Assembly: GCF_024679245.1 (NCBI RefSeq)
Contig: NC_090191.1
Coordinates: 2,252,778 to 2,316,777, forward strand
DNA: 64,000 nucleotides
Direction: 5' to 3'
Source: Pseudorasbora parva
Taxonomy: Eukaryota; Chordata; Actinopteri; Cypriniformes; Gobionidae
The position numbers were made by a program, and so were the translations under genes. Positions 17,146 to 64,000 of this stretch are shown piece after piece. The notes beneath the pieces were generated by a model, which saw nothing but the letters and a program-made list of their open reading frames with translations, did not search any database and was not told where the DNA came from. The first letter of the stretch is position 1. Each line of letters starts with the position of its first letter.

Positions 17146-17230
17146 ATGGCGTTTATTAAAGAGGAGAGTGAAGACGTGAAGATTGAAGAAACACTGAGAG
17201 TCAAACATGAAGAAACTGAGACACAAACAG
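17146..17230 (+). CDS. FiNZ zinc-finger gene A, coding exon 1 (FiNZ domain)
   Basis: The exon encodes 28 residues plus one base: MAFIKEESEDVKIEETLRVK, then HEETETQT. This is the cyprinid FiNZ N-terminal domain, an acidic segment that precedes C2H2 arrays. The start is the ATG after ttatctcaaag. The end is the donor caaacag|gttggt, which leaves phase 1, matching the acceptor at 23750 (joined codon G|AT = Asp). Within the exon IKEE, VKIE and VKHE each fit the SUMO-acceptor pattern (hydrophobic-Lys-x-Glu). The same exon occurs at 34167 and, nine-fold, at 50248. The protein is expected in the nucleus; a transposon-repressor role is family-based inference. Confidence 0.85.
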
Positions 17231-19874: not shown

Positions 19875-20389
19875 TAGGGGTGTGCACGAATAGTCGAATA
19901 TTCGATCTCTAATTAATATTCAAATGCTAAAAATACAACAACAGCAAAAAGGGCATCACTGCGTTCACGAGTGCGGAGCCCATCTGTACCCGGAGTGAGA
20001 GCGAGATTACTTATGATAGCAAAATGATCTCGAAAAATGCTTCCTTTAAAGTTCATCGAGGGTTTAAGAACAGAAAACACAAAATGCTTCACTTAAACTT
20101 CACTTTACCGTCAGCTTTGTCTCCGCAACGTCTGTCAATTGCACGTTTTCTCACCCGATAATAATATCATCATCCAATTATATTATCGTTTCTCTCAACA
20201 TGAAAATGAGAAACAATATAAACAAGACAACCATATACCGACTTGTGTGTGTGTGTGTGTGTGTGTAAAACGTTACATTCAGCACAATAACATGGCGCGC
20301 TTCTATTTTAAATAAACAAATATTCAAATATTTGATTTTTATGAGCCCAAATATTCGAATACAATATTTTGGGAAAATGCCCATCCCTA
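19875..20389. mobile_element. hAT MITE inserted in the gene A L2 LINE
   Basis: Ends TAGGGGTGTGCACGAATAGT and, inverted, gcccatcccTA have a perfect 8-bp target duplication ataataac (19867-19874 and 20390-20397). The B-intron LINE reads straight through this site (cacataataacctctcc near 39786), which confirms the insertion. It contains a (TG)n tract and no transposase. Confidence 0.92.
20243..20267 (+). repeat. (TG)n microsatellite
   Basis: About eleven TG dinucleotides in a row lie inside the hAT MITE. Confidence 0.9.
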
Positions 20390-20907
20390 ATAATAACCTC
20401 TCCCTTCTAAGTATGACCTGAACCATTTGAGGACCTTCCCAGAGAGCCCGACCCAGTTTTCCAGCCTGTCTAGAAGTATGTTGTGGTCAACAGTGTCGAA
20501 TGCAGCACTGAGGTGCAGTTGTACCAGAATTGATGGTTTACTTGTATCAGTGTTTAAGCGAATATCATTTATAATCTTTATGAGCGCTGTCTCTGTGCTG
20601 TGATGCGGACGGAAACCAGATTGAAAATGGTCGAAGTATCTGTTTGAGCTTAAGAATTTGTTCAGCTGATTGAAAACAACTTTTTCAATGATCTTGCCTA
20701 TGAGGGGGAGATTTGAGATTGGTCTGTAGTTGCTCAATATGGAGTTATATTTCTCTTTTTCAGGAGAGGCTTAACTACTGCGGTTTTAAGGGAGTTTGGG
20801 AAAGTCCCATTTTTTTTAAACTCCCAAGTGGAGTTTACCACTTATAGGAGGTCTGCTTCTAAACAGTTAAACACACTTTTGAAAAAAGAGGTAGGGAGTG
20901 TGTCAGA

Positions 20908-23749: not shown

Positions 23750-24471
23750 ATCTGATGGCTCTGAAAGTGGAGAGTCAAGAACTAAATGACATGGAAGAGA
23801 AAGATATGTATGGGCAACATCATGATTTCATAACTGGAGAAAAATCTTTTAGTTGCTCACAGACTGAAAAGATTTTCTCTCAAAAAATCACTCAAAAGCC
23901 TGAAAAGAGTTTAATTGTAGAAGGAACACTTGAGGAACACATAATTCACACTGGAGAGAAGCCTCACACCTGTCAACAGTGTGGAAAGAGTTTCACTCGA
24001 ATGGGGCATCTTAATTTCCACATGAAATTTCACACCAAAGAGAAGCCTTACACCTGTCAACAGTGTGGAAAGAGTTTTGCTCTAAAAGGAAACTTTAAGG
24101 AACACATTAGAATTCACACTGTGGGGAAGAATTACACCTGCCCTCAGTGTGGAAAGAGTTTCGCTCATAAAGGAAACTTTGAGAAACACATTAGAATTCA
24201 CACTGGAGAGAAGCCTTACTCCTGCCCAGAGTGTGGAAAGAGTTTCACTCAAACAGGGCATCTTGATGTCCACATGAGAATTCACACTGGAGAGAAGCCT
24301 TACTCCTGCCAAGAGTGTGGAAAGAGTTTCCCTCATAAAGGAAACTTTAAACTCCATATGCGTGTTCACACTGGAGAGAAGCCTTACACCTGCCCACAGT
24401 GTGGAAAGAGTTTCACTCAACCAGGACACTTTAAGCAACACATGAGAAATCACAATGGAGAGAAGCTTTAA
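23750..24471 (+). CDS. FiNZ zinc-finger gene A, terminal exon with 6 C2H2 fingers
   Basis: The exon follows the acceptor tgtctcttttag|atctg and continues Fi[21 protein letters not shown], then [20 protein letters not shown], a degenerate first finger lacking its second Cys. Six canonical fingers (CxxC...HxxxH with TGEKPY-type linkers) follow. Helix positions -1/3/6 read R/H/F, L/N/E, H/N/K, Q/H/V, H/N/L and Q/H/Q. Joined with 17146-17230 the protein is 268 aa. It ends HNGEKL-stop: the stop is created in what would be the linker before a further finger, because the next bases still spell TYQQCGKSF. Expected role: sequence-specific DNA binding in the nucleus, probably repressive by family; the target is unknown. 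Confidence 0.9.
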
Positions 24472-25167: not shown

Positions 25168-26695
25168 GATGAGCATGAGTAGGATGTGGCAGAGGATGGG
25201 GGAGCAGAGTTTGGAGACATTTAGTGGTACTCCATGGTGAGGAGGATCAGGATGAGGGGGAGCAGGGTTTGGAGACAGTCAGTGGTGCTCCATGGCGAGG
25301 AGGATCAGGATGTGGCAGAGGATGGGGGAGCAGAGTTTGGAGACATTCAGTGGTGCTCCATGGTGAGGAGGATCAGGATGAGTCAGGATGAGGGGGAGCA
25401 GGGTTTGGAGACAGTCAGTGGTGCTCCATGGTGAGGAGGATCAGGATGTGGCAGAGGATGAGGGTTTGGAGACAGTCGGTGGTGCTCCATGGCGAGGAGG
25501 ATCAGGATGAGTCAGGATGAGGGGGAGCAGGGTTTGGAGACAGTCAGTGGTGCTCCATGGTGAGGAGGATCAGGATGGGTCAGAGGATGAGGGTTTGGAG
25601 ACAGTCGGTGGTGCTCCATGGTGAGGAGGATCAGGATGAGTCAGGATGAGGGGGAGCAGGGTTTGGAGACAGTCAGTGGTGCTCCATGGTTAGGAGGATC
25701 AGGATATGGCAGAGGATGAGGGGGAGCAGGGTTTGGAGACGGTCAGTGGTGCTCCATAGTGAGGAGGATCAGGATGTGGCAGAGAATGAGGGGGAGCAGG
25801 GTTTGGAGACGGTCAGTGGTGCTCCATGGTGAGTAGGATCAGGATGAGTCAGGATGAGGGGGAGCAGGGTTTGGAGACAGTCAGTGGTGCTCCATGGTGA
25901 GGAGAATCAGGATGAGTCAGAGGATGAGGGTTTGGAGACAGTCGGTGGTGCTCCATGGTGAGGAGGATCAGGATGAGTCAGAGGATGAGGGGGAGCAGGG
26001 TTTGGAGACAGTCAGTGGTGCTCCATGGTTAGGAGGATCAGGATGGGGCAGAGGATGAGGGGGAGCAGGGTTTGGAGACGGTCAGTGGTGCTCCATAGTG
26101 AGGAGGATCAGGATGTGGCAGAGAATGAGGGGAAGCAGGGTTTGGACACGGTCAGTGGTGCTCCATGGTGAGGAGGATCAGGATGTGGTAGAGGATGAGG
26201 GGGAGCAGGGTTTGGAGACGGTCAGTGGTGCTCCATGGTGAGTAGGATCAGGATGAGTCAGGATGAGGTGGAGCAGGGTTTGGAGACAGTCAGTGGTTCT
26301 CCATGGTGAGGAGAATCAGGATGAGTCAGAGGATGAGGGTTTGGAGACAGTCGGTGGTGCTCCATGGTGAGGAGGATCAGGATGAGTCAGAGGATGAGGG
26401 GGAGCATGGTTTGGAGACAGTCAGTGGTGCTCCATGGTGAGGAGGATCAGGATGAGTCAGAGGATGAGGGGGAGCAGGGTTTGGAGACGGTCAGTGGTGC
26501 TCCATAGTGAGGAGGATCAGGATGAGTCAGAGGATGAGGGGGAGCAGGGTTTGGAGACGGTCAGTGGTGCTCCATAGTGAGGAGGATCAGGATGTGGCAG
26601 AGAATGAGGGGGAGCAGGGTTTGGAGACTGTCAGTGGTGCTCCATGGTGAGGAGGATCAGGATGAGTTCGAGGATGAGGGGGAGCGGGGTTTGGA
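25168..26695 (+). repeat. 70-bp minisatellite, about 22 units
   Basis: The basic unit is about 70 bp: tggtgctccatggtgaggag, then gatcaggatg, tggcagagga, tgagggggag, cagggtttgg, agacagtcag. Units vary by substitution (gtggcag or gagtcag, acagtcag or acggtcag) and some lack about 18 bp. Because 70 is not divisible by 3, reading frames do not persist, so it is not treated as coding. The same unit forms the array at 62966-64000 behind gene C. Confidence 0.95.
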
Positions 26696-34166: not shown

Positions 34167-34251
34167 ATGGCGTTTATTAAAGAGGAGAGTGAAGACGTGA
34201 AGATTGAAGAAACATTGAGAGTCAAACATGAAGAATCTGAGGACCAAACAG
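34167..34251 (+). CDS. FiNZ zinc-finger gene B, coding exon 1 (FiNZ domain)
   Basis: Encodes MAFIKEESEDVKIEETLRVK then HEESEDQT plus one base, and differs from gene A mainly near its end. The ATG follows ttatctcaaag, and the donor is caaacag|gttggt, phase 1. The intron to 42803 is about 8.5 kb and filled with nested transposons. Confidence 0.85.
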
Positions 34252-38292: not shown

Positions 38293-40350
38293 TATATATT
38301 TTTGGTGCATTATTGTATTTAAACATTCGGTTATTTTTGTTCTTACAAAAATAGTTCTTAAAGCGGTTATGCTATGGCAACACTTTTTTTTGCAACTTAT
38401 TTCAATATCGTGATAATATCGTATATCGTGATAAAACTTCATCAATTAATCGCAACATGAAAAATTGATATCGGCACATGCCTATTCGCAATGTCTCCTA
38501 ACCTTACAATTCGGTCCAAGACGGGCTCCTGTATAGATCGTGACCTTTGCTCCTGTAGGGGACGTGACCTTTGCCCTGCAGGGCCTGCCCTTTCTTGAGT
38601 CCGCTTCTTTCCTGTCTGCTACCACAAGCAGAATGAAGCAAAGCGCACTGCTCTCCTTTTCCCATCTCTTCCAGTCAGACAGCCTTAACCAGAATTAAAA
38701 ATAATCAAATGATGATGTATAGATAAAATGACAATAACCAAAGATAAAAACAAAGGTAAACTAAAATAATTAAAAGATGATGCATAGATAAGGTGCGATC
38801 AGTCGGACGTACAGTGGCTCAGAGCTCATTCAGTAAATGCACAGCTAAACAGATGTGTTTTGAGTCTGGATTTGAATGTGGCTACTGTTGGAGCACATCT
38901 GATCTGTTCAGGAAGCTGGTTCCAACTACGGCTGGCATAATAGCTAAAAGCAGACTCTCCTTGCTTTGAATGAACTCTTGGTATTTCTAACGAATTTGAT
39001 CCTGCTGATCTGAGTGATCTGTTGAGTTTGTATTTAATCAGCATATCTGCGATGTATTGAGGTCCTACACTGCAAAAAAGGCTTTTCTTACTTAGTATTT
39101 TTATCTTGTTTCTAGTCAAAATATGTGATATGTGACTGGTGTGATATGGTCATATTTTCTGGTTCTGCTCAGAATCCTGGCAGCAGCATTCTGTATGAGC
39201 TGCAGCTGTCTAATGGTCTTTTTGGGAAGGCCGGTGAGAAGTCCATTACAATAGTCCACCCTACTGGTGATGAAAGCGTGAACCAGTTTCTCTAAGTCTT
39301 GCCTGGAGACAAAACATCTAATCCTTGCAATATTTTTCAGATGATAGTATGCTGATTTAGTTATTGCTTTGACATGACTACTGAAACTCAGGTCTGACTC
39401 CAAAATCACACCAAGATTCCTGACTTGATTTTTTGTTATCAGACCTTTAGCCTCAAGATACGCGTTCACCTTGAGAATTTAATCTTTGTTTCCAAATGTA
39501 ATGATTTCAGTTTTGTCTTTGTTTAACTGAAGATAGTTTTGGCACATCCAGTTGTTAACTTCATCAATGCATTTGCACAGGGAGTCAATGGGGCTGTAGT
39601 CATTAGGTGACAGTGCTAAGTAGAGCTGGGTGTCGTCAGCATAGCTGTGGTAAGCAATATTGTTATTTTTCATGATTTGGCTCAGTGGCAGCATATACAG
39701 GTTAAACAGGAGTGGTGCAAGAATTGACCCTTGTGGGACTCCGCATGTCATGGATGTCCACTCAGACTTATGGTCTCCTATACTCACATAATAACCTCTC
39801 CCTTCTAAATATGATCTGAACCATTTAAGGACTTTCCCAGAAAGCCCGACCCAGTTTTCCAGCCTGTTTAGAAGTATGGTGTGGTCAACAGTGTCGAATG
39901 CAGCACTGAGGTTGAGTAGAACCAGAATTGATGTTTTACCTGTATCAGTGTTTAAGTGAATATAATTTATAATCTTTATGAGCGCTGTTTCTGTACTGTG
40001 ATGTGGACGGAAACCAGATTGAAAATGGTCGAAGTATCCGTTTGAGTTTAAGAATTTGTTCAGCTAATTGAAAACAACTTTGTCAATGATCTTGCCTATG
40101 AGGGGGAGATTTGAGATTGGTCTGTAGTTGCTCAATATGAAGTTATCCAGATTTCTCTTTTTCAGAAGAGGCTTAACTACTGCAGTTTGGGAGTTTGGAA
40201 AAGTCCCATTGAGAAGTGAGTTTACCTCTTCTAGGAGATCTGCTTCTAAACAGTTAAATACACTTTTAAAAAAAGAAGTTGGGAGTGTGTCAAGGGCGCA
40301 GGTTGAGGTTTTAGGTGCAGTACCATTTCTTCTAAAATTTTACCATCAGT

Positions 40351-42802: not shown

Positions 42803-43524
42803 ATCTGATGGCTCTGAAAGTGGAGAGTCAAGAGCTAAATGACATGGAAGAGAAAGATATGTATGGGCAACATCATGATTTCATAAATAAAGAAAAAACT
42901 TTTAGTTGCTCACAGACTGAAAAGATTTTCTCTCAAAAAATCACTCAAAAGCCTGGAAAGAGTTTACTTGAAAAAGGAACCCTTGAGGAACACATAATTC
43001 ACACTGAAGAGAGGCCTTTCACCTGCCAACACTGTGGAAAGAGTTTCACTCGAAAAGGAAACTTTGAGGAACACTTGAGAATTCACTCTGGGGAGAAGCC
43101 TTACTCCTGCCAACACTGTGGAAAGAGTTTCAGTCGAATGGGGCATCTTAATATTCACATGAGAGTTCACACCGAAGAGAAGCCTTTCACGTGCCTGCAG
43201 TGTGGAAAGAGTTTTGCTCTAAAAGAAAACTTTGAGGAACACATGAGAATTCACACTGGGGAGAAGCATTACACCTGCCCTCAGTGTGGAAAGAGTTTCA
43301 CTCATAAAGGAAACTTTGAGAAACACATTAGAATTCACACTGGAGAGAAGCCTTTCACCTGCCAACAGTGTGGAAAAGGTTTCACTCAAAAAGGAAATGT
43401 TAAACTCCATATGCGTGTTCACACTGGAGAGAGGCCTTACACCTGCCCACAGTGTGGAAAGAGTTTCACTCAAACAGGAAACTTCAAGGAACACATGAGA
43501 ATTCACAATGAAGAGAAGCTTTAA
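42803..43524 (+). CDS. FiNZ zinc-finger gene B, terminal exon with 6 C2H2 fingers
   Basis: Acceptor tttgtttcttttag|atctg, then [19 protein letters not shown] as in gene A and the same degenerate first finger ([12 protein letters not shown]). Six canonical fingers follow, with helix positions -1/3/6 R/N/E, R/H/I, L/N/E, H/N/K, Q/N/L and Q/N/E. Fingers 2-4 correspond to A fingers 1-3, finger 5 to A finger 5 and finger 6 to A finger 6. With 34167-34251 the protein is 268 aa, the same length as A. It ends HNEEKL-stop, and more finger sequence follows the stop. The duplication is old enough for contact residues to differ, so target specificity has probably diverged (inference). Confidence 0.9.
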
Positions 43525-43951: not shown

Positions 43952-45062
43952 CACTATATTGCAAAAAGGATTGGGACGCCCCTCCAAAATCATTGAAATC
44001 AGATGTTCAATCACTTCCATGGCCACAGGTGTGTAAATCAAGCACTAGGCACAGAGACACTTCTACCTCAAGCGTGGTACTGTGATAGGTTGCCACCTGT
44101 GCAATAAGTCCATTCGTGAAGTTTCCTCCCAACTAAATATTCTACGCTCAACTGTTAGTGGGATTATAACAAAGTGTAAGCAATTGGGAACTCAGCCACA
44201 AATAGGGAGGCCACGTAAAATCCCAGAGCGTGGTCAGTGCATGTTGAGAATCACAGTGTGCAGAAGTCATCAACTTTATCCAGAGTTAATAGCTACAGAC
44301 CTCCAAACTTCTGTGGCCTTCAGATGAGCTCAAGAACTGCGTAGAGAGCTTCACGGAATGGGTTTCCACGGCCGAGCAGCTCATCCAAGCCTTACATCAC
44401 CAAGAGCAATGCAAAGCGTGGGATGCAGTGGAGTAAAGCAGCCGCCACTGGACTCTAGAGCAATGAGACGTGTTCTCTGAGTGAACAAACACGCTTCAGT
44501 CTGACAATCCCATGGACGAGTCTGGGTTTGGCTGTTGCCAGGAGAACGGGACTTGCCTGATTGCATCGTGCCAAGTGTAAAATTTGGTGGAGGGGGATAA
44601 GGTTGTTTTTCAGTGGTTGGATCTCATGCTCCCAACTTGGTGGAAACAATTTGGGGATGGCCCCTTCCTGTCCCAACATGACTACGCTCCAGTGGACTAA
44701 TCGTCGGTCCATAAAGACATGGATGAGCGAGTTTGGTGTGGAGGAACTTGACTGGCCTGCACCGAGTCCTGAGCTCAACCCGATAGAACAGCTTTGGGAT
44801 GAATTAGAGCGGAGACTGAGAGCCAGGCCTTCTCGTCCAACATCAGTGCCTGACCTCACAAATGCGCTTCTAGAAGAATGGGCAAAAATCCCCATAGACA
44901 CACTCCTAAACCTTGAGGAAAGCCTTCCCAGAAGAGCTTAAGCTGTTATAGATTCAAAGGGTGAGCCGACTCCATATTAAACCTTACAGATTAAGAATGG
45001 GATGTCATTAAAGTTCATGTGAATGTAAAGGCAGACATCCCAAAACTTTTGGCAATATATTG
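43952..45062 (+). mobile_element. Tc1-like element, both ends present, transposase broken
   Basis: Ends CACTATATTGCAAAAAGGAT and, inverted, cttttggcaatatattg are flanked by TA (43950-43951, 45063-45064). The transposase reading shows RGTVIGCHLCNKSIREVSSQ (helix-turn-helix region), ELHGMGFHGRAA-like text and, at 44700-44940, KTWMSEFGVEELDWPAPSPE, LNPIEQLWDELERRLRARPS and NLEESLPRRA. Indels and a deletion of part of the catalytic core (around 44610) inactivate it. It was inserted before the A/B duplication. Confidence 0.9.
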
Positions 45063-50247: not shown

Positions 50248-51028
50248 ATGGCATTTATTAAAGAGAAGAGTGAAGACGTGAAGATTGAAGAAACATTGGG
50301 AGTCAAACATGAAGAAACTGAGGATCAAACAAAGATGGCGTTTATTAAAGAGGAGAGTGAAGACGTGAAGATTGAAGAAACATTGGGAGTCAAACATGAA
50401 GAAACTGAGGATCAAACAAAGATGGCGTTTATTAAAGAGGAGAGTGAAGACGTGAAGATTGAAGAAACATTGAGAGTCAAACATGAAGAAACTGAGGATC
50501 AAACAAAGATGGCGTTTATTAAAGAGGAGAGTGAAGACGTGAAGATTGAAGAAACATTGAGAGTCAAACATGAAGAAACTAAGGAACAAACAAAGATGGC
50601 GTTTATTAAAGAGGAGAGTGAAGACGTGAAGATTGAAGAAACATTGGGAGTCAAACATGAAGAAACTAAGGAACAAACAAAGATGGCGTTTATTAAAGAG
50701 GAGAGTGAAGACGTGAAGATTGAAGAAACATTGAGAAACAAACATGAAGAAACTGGGAAACAAACACAGATCTCGTTTATTAAAGAGGAGAGTGAAGACG
50801 TGAAGATTGAAGAAACATTGAAAGTCAAACATGAAGAAATTGAAGATCAAACAAAGATGGCGTTTATTAAAGAGGAGAGTGAAGATGTGAGGGTTGAAGA
50901 AACATTGAGAGTCAAACATGAAGAAATTGAAGATCAAACAAAGATGGCGTTTGTTAAAGAGGAGAGTGAAGACGTGAAGATTGAAGAAACATTGAGAGTA
51001 AAACATGAAGAATCTGAGGAACAAACAG
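50248..51028 (+). CDS. FiNZ zinc-finger gene C, coding exon 1: nine tandem FiNZ units
   Basis: A single exon holds nine head-to-tail copies of the 29-residue FiNZ unit (87 bp each, starting 50248, 50335, 50422, 50509, 50596, 50683, 50770, 50857, 50944), all in frame. Unit text is MAFIKEESEDVKIEETLRVK then HEETEDQTK with few changes (unit 7 starts Ile instead of Met; unit 8 has VRVE). Copies join as caaaca+aagATG, which removes the splice donor from all but the last, where caaacag|gttggt ends the exon in phase 1 as in A and B. The 260-residue product is highly acidic/lysine rich and contains about 24 hydrophobic-Lys-x-Glu motifs. The start is the first ATG after ttatttcaaaag. Confidence 0.85.
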
Positions 51029-51599
51029 GTTGGTTTTATTCTCAAAGCTCAACTCACACATTTTTTCTTTATTTAAATGTCCAGTTCTACAGAAATGAGA
51101 ATATAATCTCTCTATGTTTGAAGAGTGTCCTAAGTAAAGCACTTTTGTCTTACTTGAAGTAGGTCACCTTATGTGGACAGGCATGTAGATATCAAAAAAT
51201 CTGTCCCGTATTGTTTATAGGTCCACATATAGTTCTATAAACACAAGGATTTTATAGGGGGGCAAATACTAATAGCAAATATAATGAAATCATTTTCACA
51301 ATAAGTAGTAAAGAAGTTCATCTGCGCGTGATTACGTTTTAGTGGCTTTGTTGCCTTAGCGAACGAGTCTTGAGACCGCTGTAAACTTGGGCTTTTTTTG
51401 AAAACATTTTGAGGTCGCATCCACCATTTGAACGCAAGAGGATCTCCAGATATAGAGTTGAATAGAAAAAGGGTTTCAATGGGTCTGTCGAGTAACAAAT
51501 GATGAACCTCAGGAGAACTACAGTTTGCAAAAAAGCATTTCAGTGACGGACACTGCAATGTACTGCTCTTTCTCAGCCTTTTCCTTCTTTTTCTTTAGT
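51029..51599. other. Gene C intron, nothing recognised
   Basis: The first 60 bases resemble the A and B introns after the same donor. A minus frame at 51558-51235 is not recognised. Confidence 0.4.
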
Positions 51600-52080
51600 T
51601 ACCCAGATAGCAGACAAACAAATCAATGTTAATGCATCAACTAAAATATCATTGAATCAATGTTGAGATTTATCATTGATTTTTCATCAGGTTTGCACCC
51701 TGAAATAATGTTATTTCAACGATGAAAAATAGATCAAGATGGACTTAAAATCAATAGTTTTTCAACTAAAATTAAACCACTTATTTAAGTGAATCAATGT
51801 TGAATCAATGTTAATGCATCAATCAAAATATCATTGAATCAATATTGAAATATAACATTGATTTTTCATCAGGTTTGCACCGTGAAATAATGTTGTATCT
51901 TGTGTACAGCAGGATTTTATGCCAGTTAATTGTCTCTTTATTTTAATCAGAGAGCATGTGTGGCTAATCGATATGATTTTGCATCAAAAAGTCACTCAAA
52001 GTAAACACCATCCTTCAGTTGACATGCAAATTTATTTATTTATGCCCCCACAGTTACAACAGGAAATCTCACATCTGAAT

Positions 52081-52349
52081 TTATGACACAAATGAGAAGA
52101 GCCAGGAAAAACATAACAACGTGCATCTGCAAAATGGAAGTAAATACAAATGTAAACTTGCCAATAAATACAGAAATGACACAGTACTACTGAAAGAAAG
52201 AAGGCAGAAGAAAGAATGAAATACTCCAAACTCAGGGGGTTCCACCATGAGCAATGCCCCGAAGCCTTTCAGGATGTAATGGAGCCAGTTCTGCACCGTC
52301 CTAGCAATGATAAACTCTGATGCCTCCTTTTTATCAGCATTTACGGCAT
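52081..52349 (-). pseudogene. Candidate minus-strand exon inside the 3-kb element
   Basis: An acceptor (gttgttttag) precedes an open frame AVNADKKEASEFIIARTVQN then WLHYILKGFGALLMVEPPEF, which decays to hydrophobic text and stops at 52081. A perfect donor on the same strand (aagag|gtaagt) lies at 53466, about 1.1 kb upstream. The protein is not recognised. It could be a remnant of the element's own gene or a captured host exon. Confidence 0.4.
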
Positions 52350-52852
52350 CTAAAACAACAAGAAGTTAATAAATATTTGGAAATGTGATTAATTATACAT
52401 TACAAATATAGCCTACTACAAAATGAAGTGAAACTTGAAATTTTATCAAAATCTTGATATCCCAGTTAAAACGGTAACATTAAATTCAGGACTATTTAAG
52501 GCATTTTAAAATAGACTTTAAAGGACCTGCAGACACACAATGAATGAAAAAGCAAAGTGACTATATCCGGTGTTTTATCTAATAATATTATTGTATTTAA
52601 TAGTAAATAAATAAAGTGTGAAAATGAAACAAGTAAATGAATGACCAAATAGCTAAATTAAGAAAATAAAAGAGGAGCTGTATAGGCTACATGGTGGTTT
52701 GGAAGAGATTTTTTTTCCATTTACAACACTAACTGGAGGCACAACTGTTTACTAAATGTCTGTAGTTTGATATAGCTGCCTACAGAACTTAAAGATCTCA
52801 CTCTTTTCTTGCTGCATTAAAGATTAAACTGTAATGATGTAGTTGTGATCTG

Positions 52853-52975
52853 CTCTCGTGATGATATCTCACAGCTGAAGCAGAGCTGAACTGATTGTAT
52901 TTCCCCTCACAGCGCTAACAGGTCAATTAGTTCTAGTTCTGCTTCAGCTGTGAGATACTCTCACGAGTGGCGAAC
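52853..52975. repeat. Long hairpin, arms about 40 bp
   Basis: ctctcgtgatgatatctcac with agctgaagcagagctgaact (52855-52894) faces agttctagttctgcttcagc with tgtgagatactctcacgag (52930-52968). Confidence 0.8.
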
Positions 52976-53044
52976 ACAATTACTGACAAGCCAGAAATTC
53001 ATCTAACCTTCCGATCGCCTCTGGTTTATACACTGGACGAATAT

Positions 53045-53275
53045 AGGATGATTCAAAATGATTCATCTGTGTGTGCAACGAGTAAGATACGTTTGTGGAT
53101 CCGCGCTGCGCATTCATTGACTTTGTGAGTCGATCCTATATGGTCTCAAAATCCAAATGAATCAAATAGGATCGACTCACAAGTCAATGAATGCATGTGC
53201 AGCAACGTTTCCACAAATGCACATTTTACTCGTTGCACGCACAGATTAATCATCTTAATACTAAAATCATCTCAT
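53045..53275. repeat. Long hairpin, arms about 100 bp
   Basis: The left arm (53049-53141, gatgattc...gcaacgagtaa...gtgagtcgatcctat) is complementary to the right arm (53166-53265, ataggatcgactcac...ttactcgttgc...aatcatc). The best-paired core is tgtgagtcgatcctat. The loop is about 25 bases. Confidence 0.8.
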
Positions 53276-54055
53276 AAAATAGATGAACACCTCACAACAA
53301 ACTGGCCGTTGGTTGTGTAACTTATGAGGGCGTTCATGTGACTCTATTAACATTGCAGTTCACTCTGACTCGCTCAGGAGAAGCACACAAGTTGTAAAAC
53401 ATAAAGATGAATAAATATTAATTGAATAAATTGAATTTTATAAATATATTTTTGTAGGCCACTTACCTCTTAAAAACACGGTCGTTGTCCTGTGTCTCTT
53501 TTTCGCGATTGAAGTCTGTTCAGCTGCGCTTGCTTTGGTTGATTGGTGGATGTCTTGAAGGTGCATTACCGCCACCTGCTGGATTGGATTGTGGCGCATT
53601 CGATAGGGACATATTCTAAATTCTTTATTAACCCTGTATTCTTTAGATAAAAAATGAAATGCATGTACATTCTACATGATTTAAATAATAATAATAGCCT
53701 ACATTTTTATTTATTTAAAACTGATAGACTAAATTTATGGTAGAAGTTCTTTGTTTTGTTTTTTATTGTTGTTTTTTTTACATTTTTTATTATAATAACA
53801 TGAAACACAGAATGACTACATGCCAGTAAGCAGGAAAACAATATGCCTTTTAAAAAGATTCATAGTTTTTACAGCTTTCTTATTGGAAGAGTCAGAAATC
53901 AAACACACATACAATTTTAACTCTTCCAGATAAAGGTTAAAGAAAGGCTTACAATTACAAAATTTACATTTATGTATTCTTTGTTAATCCACACACTCGT
54001 TGGTGTACTCATCGTATCCTTTGAGGATAATAAATGTGCTCACATTCACACAAAT

Positions 54056-54278
54056 TAGGGGTGTAGCGATTTGTTTTAACAACGATTCGATTCGACTGAA
54101 ATGAAACAGTCACACTGATTTCAATTTTTGGCAAAAAAAATTACTGAATCGATTTCAAATCGCTGAATTGTTTCGGATCATATCGTTCTAAAGGAACCAA
54201 TATCGTCCTTTAATCGTATCGACAACCTCAAATCGTGATACAAATCGAATCATTGTTAAACTAATCGTTACACCCCTA
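54056..54278. mobile_element. hAT MITE, 223 bp, copy 2
   Basis: Same family and length as 10634-10856 in opposite orientation. Perfect 8-bp target duplication acacaaat (54048-54055 and 54279-54286). Nested in the 51600-54609 element. Confidence 0.92.
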
Positions 54279-54609
54279 ACACAAATGTACCCAATTGATT
54301 TGGACTTGCCTTAACATGTTGAATAATGTGACAGATAGATTGACCGTAAGCCCCACCGGTGGAGAATTAAGATGACCAAACATCAGCATTGATTCAATGT
54401 TTGTCTTTTCAACACTGAAAAGCATGGAATTATCAACATTGATCCAATATTATTTAGCAGTGAATTTTCAACATTGGTCCAGTATGGTTTTAGCATTGAA
54501 TTTTCAACATTGATCCAATATTACTTAGCATTGAAATTTCAACCTCAACCAAAATGATGATTCTGATGGAATTTCAACATTGAATCAATGTCACAATGCT
54601 ATCTGGGTA

Positions 54610-55360
54610 TCCTCCTGACGTTTTTTGACATGAACAGCATGTGTTCTGATCATGTCCTTCGTCCTATCCGATTTAACTCCGTTCCAGCTGCTGACAGTTC
54701 TGGCCTCAAGTCATTGAGGAAAATGTTGCACTTGTCCATATCCCACCGACTCAGGGTTTTCTCTTTCTGGGGGGCTGTGACATTCAAATTGAATTGAACT
54801 AAATTGAAAGCATTTATTATCATTGTATTTGCATACAATGAAATTAGGAGTGCAGCTCCAGAATGATGGTTGAAAGACATACATATAACCAGGCAACCAT
54901 TACCACAAGAAAACAAACTGTATTAATTATTTTAACGTTGATAATGTTCTTTACATTGTCATTATAAGTGATTACTGTCACTTTAAATGATCTTCCGCTG
55001 TCGCACATGATGAAGTCGCAGTTACAAAACGCGTGACTGTCCCCCACCTGCTCCTCTTCAAAAAATTACATTTGCTGCCCCATTGATCAATGTATTTACA
55101 TGAGGGTTTTGGTTTTTTGCCAGGAGTGCCTTCCGTCTCTATCGTTAGTTACGTCCATCATCCGCCTCGGTTTTGTTTTTTTCCCCGCGTTGTCACTCGT
55201 CATCTGACCTCACACACTAACCTCGTGACAACAGCCACCTATAGTGTAGGCAGTTATCGCGAGGCTAATTACAGAGCTCAGATTGGAAATGTTTTTGTTT
55301 TTTTTACTCCGGTATTATTATTATTTAATAACGCAGGTTAAAATACGGGTGATTTAGGGG
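54610..55360. other. Gene C intron, old LINE-like scraps only
   Basis: ttgaaagcatttattatcat at 54804 resembles a LINE 3' end. The GC-richer 55110-55260 part is not recognised. No gene supported. Confidence 0.3.
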
Positions 55361-57140
55361 AAAATATGAATACGGGAAAATGGCTACAGATTCAGCTGCT
55401 TGAATTAAGATCGGAAGGTCATTCGACCAGCTAGGAATGGTCCAGGAAAAGGTCAGTGAGAGAGAATTCATGTCTCTTTGGGATGGAGCCACAAGGTGTC
55501 GTTCAGTTGCAGAACGCAAGTTTTTGGATGGTCTTTAAATCTGAAAAAGCCGGTGACGGTGACCAAGAGATGGTGGCTGCTTTGTAGGCGAGCACCAGTG
55601 CCTTGAATTTGATGTGTGGCCATTGGCAGCCAGTGCAGTCTAATGAAGAGAGGCGTGACGTGCGCTCTCTTCGGCTGCTTTTTTGGATCAGACCACTCTC
55701 ACTGCTGCATTCTGGATCAGTTTGATTTGATTTGTTTTGATAGTGCATCCCAGAAGTAGCCTGACAAGCCAGACCCACATCAAGATGTTTGGTCTAGAAA
55801 CTCACCATTGATAGCTCAATCCGAGGGGCGGGATAAACGGTTGTCTTTCAAACTCCCTCTGCACGCGATTGGATAGCGCTACACCAACCAGAGCACGAAG
55901 GTGAAGCGGAGCTCGTTGACAGATTAAACATTTGCTGTATAAACATTGCAAAACTCCGAACACATCTTCCCTTCTTAAGAATGACTTCAGTGCTGTTCTT
56001 TGTTCTTTTCTCAGAGAAAAGCTTAACTCCAAGTCTTCCAGAGTCGCGGTCAAAGCTGATTCGAAAGACTGCCGTTCGCCAGTTTTTGTGTTTATTAGAA
56101 ACACACAAATGCAACTCGGCCGTCGTCATTATGGCCCCACCCACCGACTCAATACACGATGTGATTGGCCCGGCAAGAGTTTGGCTTTTACAGCTCAGAA
56201 GGGTATTGAGAGTTGCTTGACGACACTCGTGAGCAGATTTGCTGCCGTTAGGGTGCGTCTAGATTTCTAGGTTATGCCAGAAGGCCAGCTAGAAGAGCAT
56301 TACAGAATGTACATCCCAATGTTGTATATCGTAAATCTGCAGGACCGGGCTGTTGTAGTAATGTGCTCAGTGAAGTTTAACTGGTCATCAGTCACAACTT
56401 TAAGGTTCCTGGCTGTCCTGGGTGGAGTTATGGTTGATGAACCTAGCTGAATGGAGAAATTGTGATGAAGTGTTGGGTTGGTTGAGACCACAAGCAGTTC
56501 AGTCTTTCCACGGTTGACTTGAAGGTGATGCTCCTTTATCCAGTCAGAAATGTTTGTCAGTCAGGCAGCGATACGAACAGCGGCTGTAGGATCATCTGGT
56601 TAAAATGATAAGTAGAGTTGAGTGTCATCAGCATAGCAGTGATAGGAAAAGCCATGTTTCTGAATGAAAGAGCCTAATAATGACATGGAGAATAGAAGTA
56701 GTCAAAGCGCAAATATGACTTAGACATTTAACCTCTCCACGACACCCTAATTGACCTACCTGAGAGGTAAGACTTGAACCACCAGAGAGCAGTTCCTGAT
56801 ATGCCCATCTTCATGTGTATTGATAGGAGTATCTGATGGTTGACTGTGTAAAAAGCAGCAGACAGATTTCTGCCTCGGAGAGCAGAGAGAAGGAGGGGAG
56901 CGTGTGTGTTAGTTGTTGAGATATGCGTGTCAGTTTGTGGTGAGGAGAATTGGCTGCTCATGGAGGTGGTTTTGTTTGTGAAGAATGATGCAAAGTCATC
57001 AGCTGTAAGATGTCTGGATGAAAGGGGGCAAAAGCTGTCTAAGCAAGATGTTGAAAAAGAGATAACTTGAGAAACAGCCTGCTCCTTGGACAAGATAATT
57101 GGAAGCCTTTCTCCCTCATGCAATGGTGGCTCTTGCAAGT
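55361..57140 (-). mobile_element. L2-like LINE fragment, minus strand, interrupted
   Basis: Minus text includes HLTADDFASFFTNKTTSMSS, LSAAFYTVNHQILLSIHMK, GISGTALWWFKSYLSGRSI, and further left SRLDYCN-type and DCTGCQWPH pieces. The usual Asp of SAAFDTVNH is Tyr, and large parts of the reverse transcriptase are deleted. The helicase-associated element at 55757-56274 is inserted in it. Confidence 0.7.
55757..56274 (-). mobile_element. Helicase-carrying non-autonomous DNA transposon, 518 bp
   Basis: Ends TAGCCTGACAAGCCAGAC and, inverted, gtctagatttctaGGTTA are imperfect TIRs flanked by cccagaag / gccagaag (8 bp, one mismatch). The minus strand encodes FESALTATLEDLELSFSLRK, EQRTALKSFLRREDVFGVLQ, that is the N-terminal Gln-motif part of a RecQ-like superfamily-2 helicase. 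The Walker A position is degenerate (CLYSKC where GxGKS is expected). The superfamily is not identified. Confidence 0.7.
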
Positions 57141-57355
57141 CTCCCTCTTACTCTCAAAAGACCATTGTCCAGCACTGAATCTGAATGTCCCTTTTTCTCT
57201 TGACAGTAGCTCCTGCCTTCAATGCAATAATCTCATCAAGAAATCTCTCGCTGATAATCCTGAATAATAGCGAATTCTGCTTTCATGATATCATCTGCAG
57301 TCAATTATTTTCCACCCATTTTGGCCTTCCTCTTTCTTGTTGTATTAAATCTATT

Positions 57356-59204
57356 TCATTCAGTCCCTGGAGCACTCTGCATGAGTAGATGCCAGTAAAT
57401 CCCTCCTTTGTTTCCAAAACTGCATAAGCATCTCCTTGACCAGCATCCATGCGACAGACGGTTTAAGTCTTCCAAAATCTGAAAAGTAGAACTCAAAGGG
57501 TAGGAGACTTTTAAACCTGACGGGCAAAGGCATGTGCTGTGCATTATACGTTTGTTATATTTGGGTCATCTAGAGATATTGACAACAGATTCATGTTGGA
57601 ATTGTTGGGCCATGCTTCTTCTTTCAAAAGAAAATCAGGTCCCTTAAGCCATCCCTTACATGCTAAACATTCTTTAGCACCAATACCCCCTAGATGCCTC
57701 ATCAGCTGGATTTAAAGTTGACTTGATGTGCATTTCCACCATTCAGCTGGTGTGTGGTGAGTGTTCTGGCGCAATATGGCTGCTTTTGCATCATCCAGGT
57801 GGATTCTGCACATTGGTGGAGGTTGAGGAGACCCCCCCCCCCCTCTAAATGTAAAGCACATCGCTAAGGAAAGACCTGTGGAATATTATCTTCCCAGCCA
57901 ACATTGCACTTGCACATTTCTTAAAGGACCTGTTTTACAGGCAGAGTTAATGGTGAAAGAAACCCCCAAAGGGTCACCGAACTAACCACAGACAACATGC
58001 CATGTATTGTGTGAGGACGCTCTTTCATGGATTAACTACCGGTGAATTTATCTGTTTCAGTGCACCAGTGCAGACCAAGTATTCTTTCTATTGGCATTTC
58101 ATCTTTATCTAAGACAAGCTCTTTGGTTGCCTTTGACCTCTGTTCTTCTGGAAATGCAGGACATGAGGACACGACTACTATTCAGAAATTTTGACAGTTG
58201 AAATCCTACCTTAGCACAAGCAGCAATGATATGGAGCCATATGGAGTGCTTCAGCTTCTGTGGCAAAGATGTTAAGACTCCTGTCTGAACCTCATAAGAA
58301 CACCCAACAGATAGTTGGTGAGATAGGGGCCCTGCAACAGCTGACCATTCAGAGGTTCCTTTAAACATTGCAACACAATCGAACACTACTAAGTTTTCTT
58401 TTTTGATGATATACACCATGGTGTGGTATGTACCAAACCTTACAATCTTCTCTTATCAGCTTCTGAGGTGGTACTTCCTCTGCATATCCCGTATCAATTA
58501 CATCAGACAGAAAGGATATATACTCTTGCTGATGTTCTTGATTTCTTTTTAACTTCCTTTGGTTTCCATTTTTTTCTTGAACAGTTGGTCACATCATCAT
58601 CCGACAGTTTCTCATTAAAATTATGATTATTTTGAGCAATCAACACATCCTTTAGCCTGGCAACTGAGATCCAATTGGCCGTGACTACATGACAGCCATT
58701 GCTTCCTTTTTCACTATTACCACCTCTTAGTGGCCTATTCATGGCCCAATCCAATAGGGTCTTGTCAGCATATGGTCCTCTTACTTGACTGTCAGTGACT
58801 TCCCACGGTTCCATACGATTTGATGCAGTGAGACTAATCAACATTTCAACCTAATAATTTAAGTCATTCTGAGTGAGAATTTTATTCTTGCTCACCTGCA
58901 TTGGTTCTTGAGTATACAGCTCTGGTAAATCCATAAAAGTCTCTCCATAGGCTTGAAAGACCAGAGAGCATGAACATGTCTACAGACCTTTCTTGGCTCA
59001 TGTATGGAGCAGTATAAAGCTTCTTGTTCCTGTAAGATTCAGTGTTCTTAATAAGATGTTCTATAAAGAAACTGGCTGAACTTCCAGGATCCAAAAACGC
59101 CTAGGTGTTGACAATCTTGGTACCTGACTTTGCCTTGACTTAAATTATAGAGAGAACACATTCCTTGTTCCCGGCCCCAGTTTGACAACAAGCCTGAAAA
59201 GTAG
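57356..59204 (-). pseudogene. BEL/Pao retrotransposon internal fragment, minus strand
   Basis: Next to the LTR the minus strand reads FLDPGSSASFFIEHLI, an aspartic protease start, then ARLKDVLIAQNNHNFNEKLS, DCVAMFKGTSEW (reverse transcriptase, Asp of the first catalytic block) and ACAKVGFQLSKFLNSSRVLM. The order protease-reverse transcriptase and the spacing are those of BEL/Pao pol. Gag, most of the reverse transcriptase, integrase and the second LTR are missing, and stops are frequent. A SINE-like scrap (ctgcacattggtggaggttg) lies near 57800. Confidence 0.7.
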
Positions 59205-59959
59205 TGTTAGGGGTTAACAGCTTATGACCCAGGACCAGTAGTGAAGAAATGAAGTCAAAGAGTCAGGATTGCAATTAATTAAAATAAATGTACTTAAGAA
59301 TAGTTTACAGTTTCAAATGCAGCAGCCAGCTTCAAGTCTCACAAGGAGTTCGTAGGCCGCGTTCCCTCTCTCACAGTCTCGTTGCCTCGCCCTATCATAC
59401 ATAGAATTGTCCCAACAGTTATACCATTTTCAAGGTCTATCCACGTCATTACTGCAATGTGGATGGTTCTGATTGGCTCAGAGACAATGCACAGTCATGG
59501 TAAATGTCCACACATGTCAGTTAATCTGATGCAAAGTTTCCATAGAGTTGTCACTTGTTGATGCTTTCACCCGGAATTAGCTCCGTAGTGACCTTTCAGA
59601 TCTGGAGCAGGCCCCAGCTTTCCCAGAACAACAAGTCCACCCATCTCTTACTGTGCCCATTGTACACCATTCTCAACACTGATCTGTAACATAAAATATT
59701 GCGCATTAAGCTCCAGTTCTAACCAAAACATACTGATAACGTGCTTTCTTTCAGTGAGAGGGACACACAATAGTACAGGCAATATTCATCTTGACTCTTT
59801 AGTGTTTCAGTTAAAGGAAATATAAAAGGAATAAAATATAGTAAATTAAATGAAAGACAAATCCATATTTTGTATCTGGAAGCCGGGCTAAGTGAGCAAA
59901 CGCTGTTAATGCACTCCTGACGTGTTAGGGGTGTCTGATACCTCAAAAATCCAAACACA
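59205..59959 (-). mobile_element. BEL/Pao LTR, minus strand
   Basis: On the minus strand this begins TGTGTTTGGATTTTTGAGG and ends CCCCTAACA, directly before the protease-coding remnant. It matches the solo LTR at 46595-47484 in opposite orientation but is about 135 bp shorter. No target duplication was found. Confidence 0.65.
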
Positions 59960-60144
59960 TGACCTTGTTGCAAGTGTTTAGTGACACACCACACATCTCT
60001 AGGCCAAACCCTCAGTCACTCCTCAGAGACCAAATATACACTTTAGAAAACAAGAAACTAAAAGCAAAATCATAATTGGACAGAATCAATATAATAATAT
60101 AGGAAGATAAATATTGATTAAGGTTTTGATTATGAATTTAATTA

Positions 60145-60192
<48 letters not shown>

Positions 60193-60568
60193 TAATTAAG
60201 GTGGATTATATAGTGGATTTCAGAATTGCCCTTTCAGTAGCAAGAGCATTTTTTTACTGTTAATGGTGATAGTTTGCTTTTGGTTTCCATGTAAAGCAAA
60301 GAGGGATGCCTTTGATTGCAGATACATGGGTTTCTGCAATCTTTACTTGCATCCCCAGTCTTCTAGCAGCCAAAACAGAATCTATTCATTCTCAGTGTAG
60401 GGATCACTATACCAAAATTCCAGTAATCGGTACCAAATACCATAAAAATGTTACGGTTCTCTGTACCAATTACGATACCACAGCAAAACGTTTTTTATTT
60501 ATTTAACTATTTAATGTATGTTGTTTTGTGCACTTAAACTGGGGTTAACTTGTTTTTGTCTCTTTTAG
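59960..60568. other. End of gene C intron
   Basis: Contains an (AT)n tract and, at about 60400-60490, ctataccaaaattccagtaa / ggtaccaaataccataaaaa, probably the scrap of a hAT-type element. The last 60 bases (ggggttaacttgtttttgtc) match the intron ends of A and B. Confidence 0.45.
60145..60190. repeat. (AT)n microsatellite
   Basis: About 22 AT dinucleotides without interruption. Confidence 0.95.
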
Positions 60569-62592
60569 ATCCGATGGCACTGAAAGTGGAGAGTCAAGAG
60601 CTAAATATGAAAAAGAAAGATCCATATGGGCAACATCATGATTTCATAACTGGAGAAAAATATGAACAGACTGAAAAAATTTCCTCACAAAAAATAACTC
60701 GAAAGCCTCAAAAGAGTTTAATTGAAAAACAACAACTGAAAGTCCACAGGAAAATTCACACTGGCGAGAAGCCTCACATCTGCCAACAATGTGGAAAGAG
60801 TTTCACTCATAAAGGGCATCTTAAAGACCACATGAGAATTCACACTGGAGAGAAGCCTTACACCTGCCAACAGTGTGGAAAGAGTTTCACTCATAAAGGA
60901 AACCTTGAGCAACACATAAAAATTCACACTGGAGACAAGCCTTACACCTGCCAACAGTGTGGAAAGAATTTCACTCATAAAGGGATTCTAAACGGCCACA
61001 TGAGAATTCACACGGGAGAGAAGCCTTACATCTGCCAACTGTGTGGAAAGAGTTTCACTAATAAAGGGCATCTTAAAACCCACATGAGAGTTCACTCTGG
61101 AGAGAAGCCTTACAACTGCCCACAATGTGAAAAGAGTTTCACTCGAAAAGGGATTCTTAAAGGCCACATGAGAATTCACACTGGAGAGAAGCCTTACACC
61201 TGCCCACAATGTGGAAAGAGTTTCACTCGAAAAGGGATTCTTAAAGGCCACATGAGAATTCACACTGGAGAGAAGCCTTTCACCTGCCAACAGTGTGGAA
61301 AGAGTTTCATTAATAAATGGCATCTTAAAACCCACATGACAGTTCACACTGGAGAGAAGCCTTACACCTGCCCACAATGTGGAAAGAGTTTCGCTCATAA
61401 AGGAAGGATTGAGGAACACATGAGAGTTCACACTGGAGAGAAGCCTTTCACCTGCCAACAGTGTGGTAAGAGTTTCACTCAAATAAAGGTTCTTAAAGTC
61501 CACATGAGAGTTCACACTGGAGAGAAGCCTTTCACCTGCCAACAGTGTGGTAAGAGTTTCACTCAAATAAAGGTTTTTAAAGTCCACATGAGAGTTCACA
61601 CTGGAGAGAAGCCTTTCACCTGCCAACAGTGTGGTAAGAGTTTCACTCAAATTAAAGTTCTTAAAGTCCATATGAGACGTCACACTGGAGAGAAGCCATT
61701 CACCTGCCAACAGTGTGGAAAGAGTTTCAATTATAAAGGAAGCTTTGAGAAACACATGAGAGTTCACACTGGAGAGAGGCCATACACCTGCCAGCAGTGT
61801 GGAAAGAGTTTCAATCATAAAAGAAGTTTTGTGCAACACATGAGAGTTCATACTGGAGAGAAGCCTTACACCTGCCCTCAGTGTGGAAAGAGCTTTAGTC
61901 AAACATGGAATCTTAAAGTCCACATGAGAGTTCACACTGGAGAGAAGCCGTACACCTGCCAACAATGTGGAAAGAGTTTTAATCATAAAGGGAGTCTTAA
62001 AGGACACATGCAAGTTCACACTGGAGGGAAGAGTTTCACCTGCCAACAGTGTGGAAAGAGTTTCAATCATAAAAGAAGCTTTGAGCAACACATGAGAATT
62101 CACACTGGAGAGAAGCCTTACAGCTGCCAACAGTGTGGAATGAGTTTCGCTCAAAAAGGAAACCTTGAGCTACACATGAGAGTTCACACTGGAGAGAAAC
62201 CTTACACCTGCCAAAAGTGTGGAAAGAGTTTCACTCGAAAAAGAACCCTTGAGGAACACATGAGAGTTCACACTGGAGAAAAGCCTTACACCTGCCAACA
62301 GTGTGGAAAAAGTTTTAATCATAAAGGAAATTTCGAGGAACACATGAAAATTCACACTGGAGAGAAGCCCTACACCTGCACACAGTGTGGAAAGAGTTTT
62401 ATTCGAAGAGGAACCCTTGAGGACCACATTAGAATTCACACTGGAGAGAAGCCCTACACCTGCCAACAGTGTGGAAAGAATTTCAATCGGAAATGGCATC
62501 TTAAAGTCCACATGAAAGTTCACACTGGAGAGAAGCCTTATTCCTGCCAAGAGGTAATGACCCCTTCCTGTTCCAACATGACTGTACACTAG
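60569..62592 (+). CDS. FiNZ zinc-finger gene C, terminal exon with 21 C2H2 fingers
   Basis: Acceptor tgtctcttttag|atccg; starts [20 protein letters not shown]. The degenerate first finger of A and B is mostly lost ([10 protein letters not shown]). Twenty-one canonical fingers follow with TGEKPY/F linkers; the second linker is TGDKP, and linker 15 is TGGKS. Fingers 9-11 are almost identical ([27 protein letters not shown]), and fingers 5 and 6 share TRKGILKGH. With 50248-51028 the protein is 934 aa. Finger 22 is cut after YSCQE by Tc1-like sequence, giving a foreign tail [12 protein letters not shown] and a stop. A candidate ATTAAA lies at 62875. Expected role: nuclear DNA-binding, probably repressor; target unknown. 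Confidence 0.9.
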
Positions 62593-62961: not shown

Positions 62962-62965
62962 GGGA

Positions 62966-64000
62966 GACAGTCAGTGGTGCTCCATGGTGAGGAGGATCAG
63001 GATGAGTCAGAGGATGAGGGGGGAGCAGAGTTTAAAGACAGTCAGTGGTGCTCCATGGCGAGGGGGATCAGGATGTGGCAGAGGATGAGGGGGAGCAGGG
63101 TTTGGAGACAGTCGGTGGTGCTCCATGGTGAGGAGGATCAGGATGTGGCAGAGGATGAGGGGGAGCAGGGTTTGGAGACAGTCGGTGGTGCTCCATGGGA
63201 AGGAGGATCAGGATGAGTCAGAGGATGAGGGGGAGCAGGGTTTGGAGACAGTCGGTGGTGCTCCATGGTGAGGAGGATCAGGATGAGTCAGAGGATGAGG
63301 GGGAGCAGGGTTTGGAGACAGTCGGTGGTGCTCCATGGCGAGGAGGATCAGGATATGGCAGAGGATGAGGGAGAGCAGGGTTTGGAGACAGTCGTGGTGC
63401 TCCATGGTGAGGAGGATCAGGATGTGGCAGAGGATGAGGGGGAGCAGGGTTTGGAGACAGTCGGTGGTGCTCCATGGGGAGGAGGATCAGGATGAGTCAG
63501 AGGATGAGGGGGAGCAGGGTTTGGAGACAGTCGTGGTGCTCCATGGTGAGGAGGATCAGGATGTGGCAGAGGATGAGGGGGAGCAGGGTTTGGAGACAGT
63601 CGGTGGTGCTCCATGGGGAGGAGGATCAGGATGAGTCAGAGGATGAGGGGGAGCAGGGTTTGGAGACAGTCGGTGTTGCTCCATGGCGAGGAGGATCAGG
63701 TTGAGTCAGAGGATGAGGGGGAGCATGGTTTGGAGACAGTTGGTGGTGCTCCATGGCGAGGAGGATCAGGATGAGTCAGAGGATAAGGGGGAGCAGGGTT
63801 TGGAGACAGTCGGTGGTGCTCCATGGTGAGGAGGATCAGGATGAGGGGGAGCAGGGTTTGGAGACAGTCGGTGGTGCTCCATGGTGAGGAGGATCAGGAT
63901 GTGGCAGAGGATGTGGGTGAGCAGGGTTTGGAGACCGTCAGTGGTGCTCCATGGTGAGGAGGATCAGGATGTGGCAGAGGATGAGGGGGAGCAGGGTTTG
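62966..64000 (+). repeat. 70-bp minisatellite, second array, runs off window
   Basis: About 15 units of the repeat found at 25168-26695; ctccatgg recurs every 70 bp (63191, 63261 and so on), with some 69-bp units (gtcgtggt in place of gtcggtggt). It starts within five bases of the Tc1-like end. Confidence 0.95.

What the first reader, a model, noticed from the sequence alone, without database searches (positions are those of the whole stretch)
50248..51028. Nine-fold in-frame amplification of a FiNZ domain within one exon
Genes A and B encode one 29-residue FiNZ unit; gene C encodes nine, near-identical at the DNA level, with frame and phase preserved and only the last splice donor kept. The joins (caaaca to aagATG) look like recombination at the shared caaa. 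Amplification of the N-terminal regulatory part, rather than of the fingers, is unusual for zinc-finger genes as far as I know, and the low divergence suggests it is recent or homogenised.
Basis: partly seen in the sequence, partly recalled or inferred. Interest (0 to 1): 0.9.

Follow-up and report, generated by a model that had tools for sequence, protein, structure and literature searches.

The report
Nine-copy repeat in a fish gene
In a small carp-like fish, one of many zinc-finger genes thought to silence jumping DNA carries its short acidic front-end module nine times in a row inside one exon; its neighbours carry one to six copies, so this looks like a repeat that grows and shrinks while the reading frame stays intact, not a one-off event.

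Summary
Nine in-frame 87-nt units lie at 50248-51027, and only the last is followed by the splice donor. Genes A and B have one unit.

In 264 contiguous kb around the window, 12 of 12 FiNZ exons are each followed by one zinc-finger exon. Their unit numbers are 4,1,1,9,3,6,2,2,3,2,2,2, so 10 of 12 are multi-unit. Another nine-unit exon lies 660 kb away. Predicted multi-unit FiNZ proteins occur in other cyprinoids, often without zinc fingers.

So gene C is the long end of a copy-number series. Its units differ from each other as much as from units of other genes (5.56 vs 5.61 of 84), so it is not specially recent. Units of different genes are far more alike than flanking DNA, pointing to homogenisation across loci. 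The join is not at 'caaa', which would give 83 nt and break the frame; it shares 1-2 bp.

Most likely this is an in-frame coding minisatellite lengthening an acidic N-terminal tail. Multivalent cofactor recruitment is plausible but untested. No transcript was available. A new variant of a known gene family.

The parts
50248..51028 (+). FiNZ exon of gene C (coding part): nine units of 28 FiNZ residues, eight K/Q linkers, and the phase-1 G before the donor
50248..50682 (+). units 1-5, the most alike block (1-5 differences of 84 between any two)
   Evidence: matrix
50770..50856 (+). unit 7: first codon is ATC (I), not ATG; shares the IEDQ tail (ATT GAA GAT) with unit 8
51029..51034 (+). splice donor GTTGGT, the only donor after a unit in this exon
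   Evidence: pattern across 33 exons
51029..60568 (+). predicted phase-1 intron of gene C (9540 bases)
   Evidence: no transcript seen
60569..62592 (+). zinc-finger exon of gene C, 21 C2H2 fingers to the stop
17146..17230 (+). FiNZ exon of gene A (coding part), one unit
23750..24471 (+). zinc-finger exon of gene A, 6 fingers, stop inside a finger
34167..34251 (+). FiNZ exon of gene B (coding part), one unit
42803..43524 (+). zinc-finger exon of gene B, 6 fingers, stop inside a finger

Best explanation
The array is a coding minisatellite in the FiNZ exon of a FiNZ zinc-finger gene. Shown: the unit is 87 nt, so each gain or loss adds or removes 29 residues in frame; internal joins lack the splice donor, so the array reads as one exon; copy number varies from one to nine among neighbouring paralogs. 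Inferred: a first tandem duplication with 1-2 bp of homology joined the end of the unit to the AAG before the ATG, removing the donor. Unequal exchange or slippage between units, with exchange between loci, then changed copy number and kept units alike across the cluster. Predicted product: a 934-aa protein with nine acidic FiNZ units (net charge -41) before 21 fingers. Most likely effect, not shown: several FiNZ units on one protein bind more of a silencing cofactor (TRIM33 is the reported candidate) with higher avidity, so that unit number tunes repression; the close alternative is that the extra units are tolerated cargo. The confidence given is for the minisatellite reading; the two effects are weighed as rivals.
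For: Structure. Copy-number series 4,1,1,9,3,6,2,2,3,2,2,2 in 12 consecutive genes, each FiNZ exon followed by one ZNF exon on the same strand. A second nine-unit exon at C20:2962970 with a three-unit period (p 0.0155) and adjacent units more alike in the window array (p 0.028). Joins AAG/CAG/CAA 61 of 61, donor 33 of 33. Frame: all spacings are 87 in the main cluster, and the irregular spacings in three distal exons (84, 75, 72, 60, 24) are all multiples of 3. No nonsense among 84 distinct base changes in 94 units, 3.0-5.0 expected, P 0.006-0.047. F3, K5, D10 and T28 unvaried in 94 of 94 units. Homogenisation: unit pS between gene C and the other 11 genes of the 264 kb is 0.031-0.149, against 76-87% intron identity over about 60 bases, gaps left out; 5' flank identity does not track unit identity (rho -0.42, p 0.005, 42 exons). 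Co-IP suggesting TRIM33-FiNZ protein interaction: PMC11603059, passages seen.
Against: No RNA evidence. No P. parva protein near-identical to gene C appeared in the database searches (these scored 7995 and 7990 candidates, capped), so this exon may not be annotated or used. pN/pS inside the arrays of six or more units is above 1 (1.18, 1.84, 1.39), and in four-unit arrays 0.46, 0.91, 2.31 and 0.84, which does not show that each unit is needed. FiNZ number does not track finger number (rho 0.35, p 0.27, 12 genes). Of nine order tests (three arrays, three lags) two fall below 0.05, uncorrected. PMC11603059 reports no significant correlation between FiNZ-ZNF and TE expression (passage). AlphaFold gives no confident fold (mean pLDDT 58). 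Low pS rests on only about 18 synonymous sites per unit, and promoter replacement in the other genes could mimic part of the flank discordance.
Confidence: 0.7

Rival explanations
1. Neutral coding minisatellite: copy number drifts by slippage and unequal exchange; frame is kept only because a shift would destroy the zinc fingers, and unit number has no functional effect.
For: pN/pS at or above 1 in the three arrays of six or more units; N:S of 16:4 in the window array is close to the neutral 66:18; no link with finger number; repeats of about 12-13 residues inside FiNZ in other species suggest a slippage-prone sequence.
Against: Residues F3, K5, D10 and T28 are unvaried in 94 of 94 units, internal ones included; multi-unit arrays are found in several cyprinoid groups and in front of other protein types.
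Confidence: 0.4
2. Selection (dose or avidity): more FiNZ units recruit more cofactor; exchange generates dose variants, as a counterpart to finger-array turnover.
For: Frame and some core residues kept in all collected copies; array-level N:S differs between arrays of six or more units (40:7) and of one or two (45:26), Fisher p 0.012, and p 0.020 with the 3-4-unit arrays (65:21) added to the long side; co-IP suggesting FiNZ protein-TRIM33 interaction (PMC11603059, passages).
Against: At the level of distinct changes the contrast vanishes (35:7 vs 22:5); I found no functional data on multi-unit forms in the passages read.
Confidence: 0.35
3. Assembly artefact: the nine units are a mis-assembled short array.
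For: Tandem repeats can be mis-sized; no reads were available here, and the read type of this assembly is not known to me.
Against: The array is only 780 bases, with 1-10 differences between units; another nine-unit exon and many other sizes exist at other loci; a nine-unit P. parva protein and an eight-unit relative from Rhinichthys are in public records.
Confidence: 0.04
4. Untranscribed or pseudogene exon: gene C is a relic.
For: No matching P. parva protein in the capped searches; genes A and B end inside a finger.
Against: 934-aa open product with 21 fingers, acceptor and donor as in the neighbours; no nonsense change in 94 units of the cluster.
Confidence: 0.15

Closest known systems
FiNZ-ZNF (FZNF) genes of cyprinid fish (PMC10547256; passages seen)
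   Same: FiNZ sequence, FiNZ exon followed by an exon of tandem C2H2 fingers, clustered genes
   Different: Described there as a 28-residue sequence encoded by a single exon; here one to nine units with a 29-residue period. A passage search of the main text for 'multiple FiNZ', 'two FiNZ' and 'FiNZ domains' gave 0; supplements were not seen.
KRAB zinc-finger protein with two KRAB domains, mouse ZFP568 (PMC5033580; one passage seen)
   Same: Duplicated N-terminal regulatory domain before a finger array
   Different: Two copies with differing activities, not a near-identical array of up to nine units in one exon. Different domain; homology of FiNZ and KRAB was not tested here.
Finger-array minisatellites such as PRDM9 (recalled, no call)
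   Same: Coding repeat of fixed in-frame period that changes copy number and is homogenised
   Different: There the DNA-binding fingers vary; here the N-terminal module does.
Predicted multi-FiNZ proteins of other cyprinoids (among P0001-P0154)
   Same: FiNZ units in tandem, commonest linker K (91 of 185 joins)
   Different: Many of the longer arrays (4-9 units) precede THAP-type, recombinase-like or other non-finger sequence. Of 71 proteins with units 28-30 residues apart, 8 have two or more fingers (2-3 adjacent units) and 58 have none. Some may be gene-prediction chimeras or cut short.

Membership tests
FiNZ-ZNF (FZNF) | 28-residue FiNZ sequence at the N terminus | tested here: met
   Nine copies of MAFIKEESEDVKIEETLRVKHEETEDQT type. 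Identification with FiNZ rests on the paper's description (28 residues, acidic, first coding exon), on MAFIKEE-type Danio proteins (P0058, P0152) and on recall; the paper's logo was not seen, and Pfam gave no FiNZ model.
FiNZ-ZNF (FZNF) | FiNZ in one exon upstream of one exon with the finger array | tested here: met
   12 of 12 genes in 264 kb; splice inferred from sequence, no RNA
FiNZ-ZNF (FZNF) | Array of tandem C2H2 fingers | tested here: met
   21 fingers in gene C; zf-C2H2 21 stretches
FiNZ-ZNF (FZNF) | Single FiNZ unit (canonical form as I read the paper) | tested here: not met
   Nine units; 10 of 12 genes in the 264 kb have 2 or more. Treated as a variant, since the paper calls its layout canonical and defines the family by presence of FiNZ.
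FiNZ-ZNF (FZNF) | Found in cyprinid fish | tested here: met
FiNZ-ZNF (FZNF) | Represses transposable elements in the early embryo | not testable with these tools
   Reported for zebrafish by knockdown (passages)
KRAB-ZNF | KRAB domain before the fingers | tested here: not met
   No KRAB among the four Pfam families listed for the exon at E up to 10

The most novel reading that the evidence does not exclude
FiNZ exons are recombination-driven dose dials: the cluster continually produces zinc-finger repressors with 1 to 9 cofactor-binding units and shares unit variants between genes by exon-sized exchange, so effector strength evolves by repeat number separately from DNA-binding specificity. The same module has also been joined to non-finger DNA-binding or transposon-derived proteins.
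Probability: 0.22. Interest if true: 0.8.

Novelty: new variant of a known kind. Interest (0 to 1): 0.5.

Why it matters
Zinc-finger families in conflict with transposable elements are known for rapid change of the fingers. Here the effector end also varies in copy number, in frame, across a gene cluster. That gives a natural series (1, 2, 3, 4, 6 and 9 units) with which to test whether FiNZ recruits a silencer and whether repeats add strength, a question the FiNZ paper leaves open (passage). It may also mean that annotation built around a single FiNZ unit counts these forms wrongly.

Tried and rejected
Recombination at the shared 'caaa': rejected, since it would give an 83-nt out-of-frame unit. 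A recent burst in gene C alone: rejected (other long arrays). Pfam matches of the array: IL1 reaches E 1.1e-5 and 25.6 bits, just above its cut-off of 25, but no single stretch passes; DUF4785_3rd, DUF3326 and Beta-prop_Rol-3 are below their cut-offs. I take all four as sums over repeats or composition artefacts. FiNZ number tracking finger number: not supported. The long-against-short selection contrast: p 0.012 only if changes are counted per gene, and absent on distinct changes, so not claimed. Structure prediction (collected in 67; 59, 62 and 65 were not finished): a repeated strand pattern with mean pLDDT 58, not interpreted; no fold search was run. Nearest-neighbour test on tandem units in the database proteins (94 units from 37 proteins that passed my length filter, out of 71 tandem proteins): 25% of nearest neighbours lie in the same protein against 2% when shuffled, while identity is 20.5 of 28 within and 19.4 between proteins; arrays there look mostly old with some local homogenisation. 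A genome-wide count of units was not obtained: the pattern search did not complete.

Sampling limits: the 31 exons outside the 264 kb come from the top 40 of 323 candidates of a multi-unit query (the other 9 of the 40 lie inside the 264 kb), so they favour multi-unit exons; only the 12 contiguous ones are unbiased. Unit numbers are match counts: for the exon at 5065488 the 8 matches include partial ones, and its translation shows about six units. The protein searches also used multi-unit queries, and the first two scored only the best 7995 and 7990 candidates. One search counts any two units, including short overlapping repeats; one search counts spans of 28-30 residues. In one search flank alignments span 73-154 columns, unit identities are ungapped (too low for the three exons with irregular units), and exons are not independent.

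Full report
What is there. The exon at 50248-51028 holds nine 87-nt units in one open frame, each a 28-residue FiNZ sequence, joined by one linker residue. Most joins read ...CAAACA|AAGATGG; only the last unit runs into the donor CAG|GTTGGT. The exon joins in phase 1 to a zinc-finger exon at 60569 with 21 fingers, giving an open 934-aa product. Genes A and B have one unit.

Where it is. The window lies at C20:2252778-2316777 of its assembly, which has 1228657085 bases in 79 contigs. This is an inference from contig length.

It is one of a series. In 264 kb of contiguous sequence around the window there are 12 FiNZ exons with 4,1,1,9,3,6,2,2,3,2,2,2 units, each followed on the same strand by one finger exon with 14,6,6,21,9,6,11,14,12,11,10,24 fingers. 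With the 31 other matches among the 40 scored there are 43 exons; 33 lie at 2.24-3.07 Mb and hold 94 units. A second nine-unit exon lies at 2962970, and a more divergent one with nine matches at 13681798. The extra 31 were found with a multi-unit query and are biased upward.

Other species. Of 133 proteins from the first two database searches, 92 hold two or more FiNZ units by my profile, and the linker is K at 91 of 185 joins. Over all three searches, 71 of 154 have units 28-30 residues apart; 8 of those have two or more C2H2 fingers and 58 have none. Tandem forms come from Leuciscus, Pimephales, Rhinichthys, Anabarilius, Garra, Carassius, Cyprinus, Sinocyclocheilus and others. The four hits named Danio (P0058, P0076, P0089, P0152) show no such tandem; P0058 has two units with 21 residues between them. 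This is a small and biased sample of database predictions.

Not specially recent. Units of the window array differ at 5.56 of 84 sites from each other and 5.61 from units of other main-cluster genes. Units 1-5 form a closer block, and adjacent units are somewhat more alike than chance (p 0.028); the other nine-unit array has a period of three units (p 0.0155). These are two of nine tests, uncorrected. Both fit slippage or unequal exchange.

Homogenised across loci. Between gene C and the other 11 genes of the 264 kb, pS of the units is 0.031-0.149, while intron starts are 76-87% identical over about 60 bases and the 60 bases before the ATG are 59-90% identical with 12-28 gap columns. Over 42 exons, the nine whose 5' flank is most like that of gene C (0.67-0.81) have mean unit identity of 0.59-0.85 to gene C; eight of them are distal and one is the exon at 2238292. 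The other main-cluster exons have flanks of 0.59-0.65 and mean unit identity of 0.89-0.96. The correlation is negative (rho -0.42, p 0.005). Exchange of the exon between genes explains this. Replacement of the promoter in the common ancestor of the other genes is a possible alternative for the 5' part, less so for the intron part.

Constraint. All spacings are multiples of 3 in the 41 of 43 exons that have more than one match. Among 84 distinct base changes in 94 units none is a stop, where 3.0-5.0 are expected (P 0.006-0.047 by transition weight). F3, K5, D10 and T28 never vary in the 94. Yet pN/pS within arrays of six or more units is 1.18, 1.84 and 1.39 against 0.54 between two-unit genes, with 0.46-2.31 in four-unit arrays. 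On distinct changes the contrast between long and short arrays disappears (35:7 against 22:5). So the frame and a few residues are kept; selection on each unit is not shown.

How it may work. FiNZ is described as acidic and its silencing mechanism as unknown (PMC10547256, passages seen). A co-IP suggests interaction with TRIM33, with FiNZ-TE expression correlation not significant (PMC11603059, passages seen). Nine units give a net charge of -41. Multivalent binding is a natural reading, but a neutral minisatellite fits as well or slightly better on these data.

In print. Searches list three papers on the family; one search lists 19 papers with words starting 'finz', among them the same three and PMC11753138 with one occurrence, not opened. 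A passage search of PMC10547256 for 'multiple FiNZ', 'two FiNZ' and 'FiNZ domains' finds 0. PMC11620358 passages describe a first coding exon that encodes a FiNZ domain. Two broader searches (10 of 23 listed, 2 of 2) show nothing on multi-unit FiNZ by title or start of abstract. Subscription papers and supplements were not searched.

Noticed in passing
P0105, P0106, P0110, P0114, P0115, P0116, P0021; C20:13681798: FiNZ arrays of 4-9 units precede a sequence of CPLC...LSQHLR type in predicted proteins of seven species, P. parva among them; it looks recombinase- or transposon-derived (my guess, not tested). Arrays also precede THAP-type (PF05485: P0001, P0002, P0004) and PF20478 sequence (P0008, P0011, P0015, P0017, P0018). 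FiNZ may be a mobile exon; some may be gene-prediction chimeras.
   Followed up: partly
P0085, P0056, P0077, P0154; window 50286-50331 and similar: Repeats of about 12-13 residues inside FiNZ occur in database proteins, and the unit itself holds a 22-24-nt internal repeat: FiNZ may be built from smaller repeats.
   Followed up: partly
25590-26695 and 62963-64000: A 70-bp minisatellite of like consensus (about 15-16 copies) follows the finger exons of genes A and C.
   Followed up: no
24469-24471 and 43522-43524: The finger frames of genes A (...NGEKL*) and B (...NEEKL*) both stop inside a finger, with finger-like sequence beyond.
   Followed up: no
19183-20770 and 38826-40339 (-); 44561-44941 (+): Reverse-transcriptase-like ORF pieces (YRPISNLPLIGK, SAAFDTVDH) and a transposase-like ORF (PAPSPELNPIEQLW); names are from recall.
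   Followed up: no
17034-17145 and the same place before other FiNZ exons of C20:2.24-2.50 Mb: The 107-117 bases before the ATG of gene A are 98-99% identical in 8 of the other 11 genes of the 264 kb, while introns vary: a shared or homogenised 5' UTR; gene C lacks it.
   Followed up: partly
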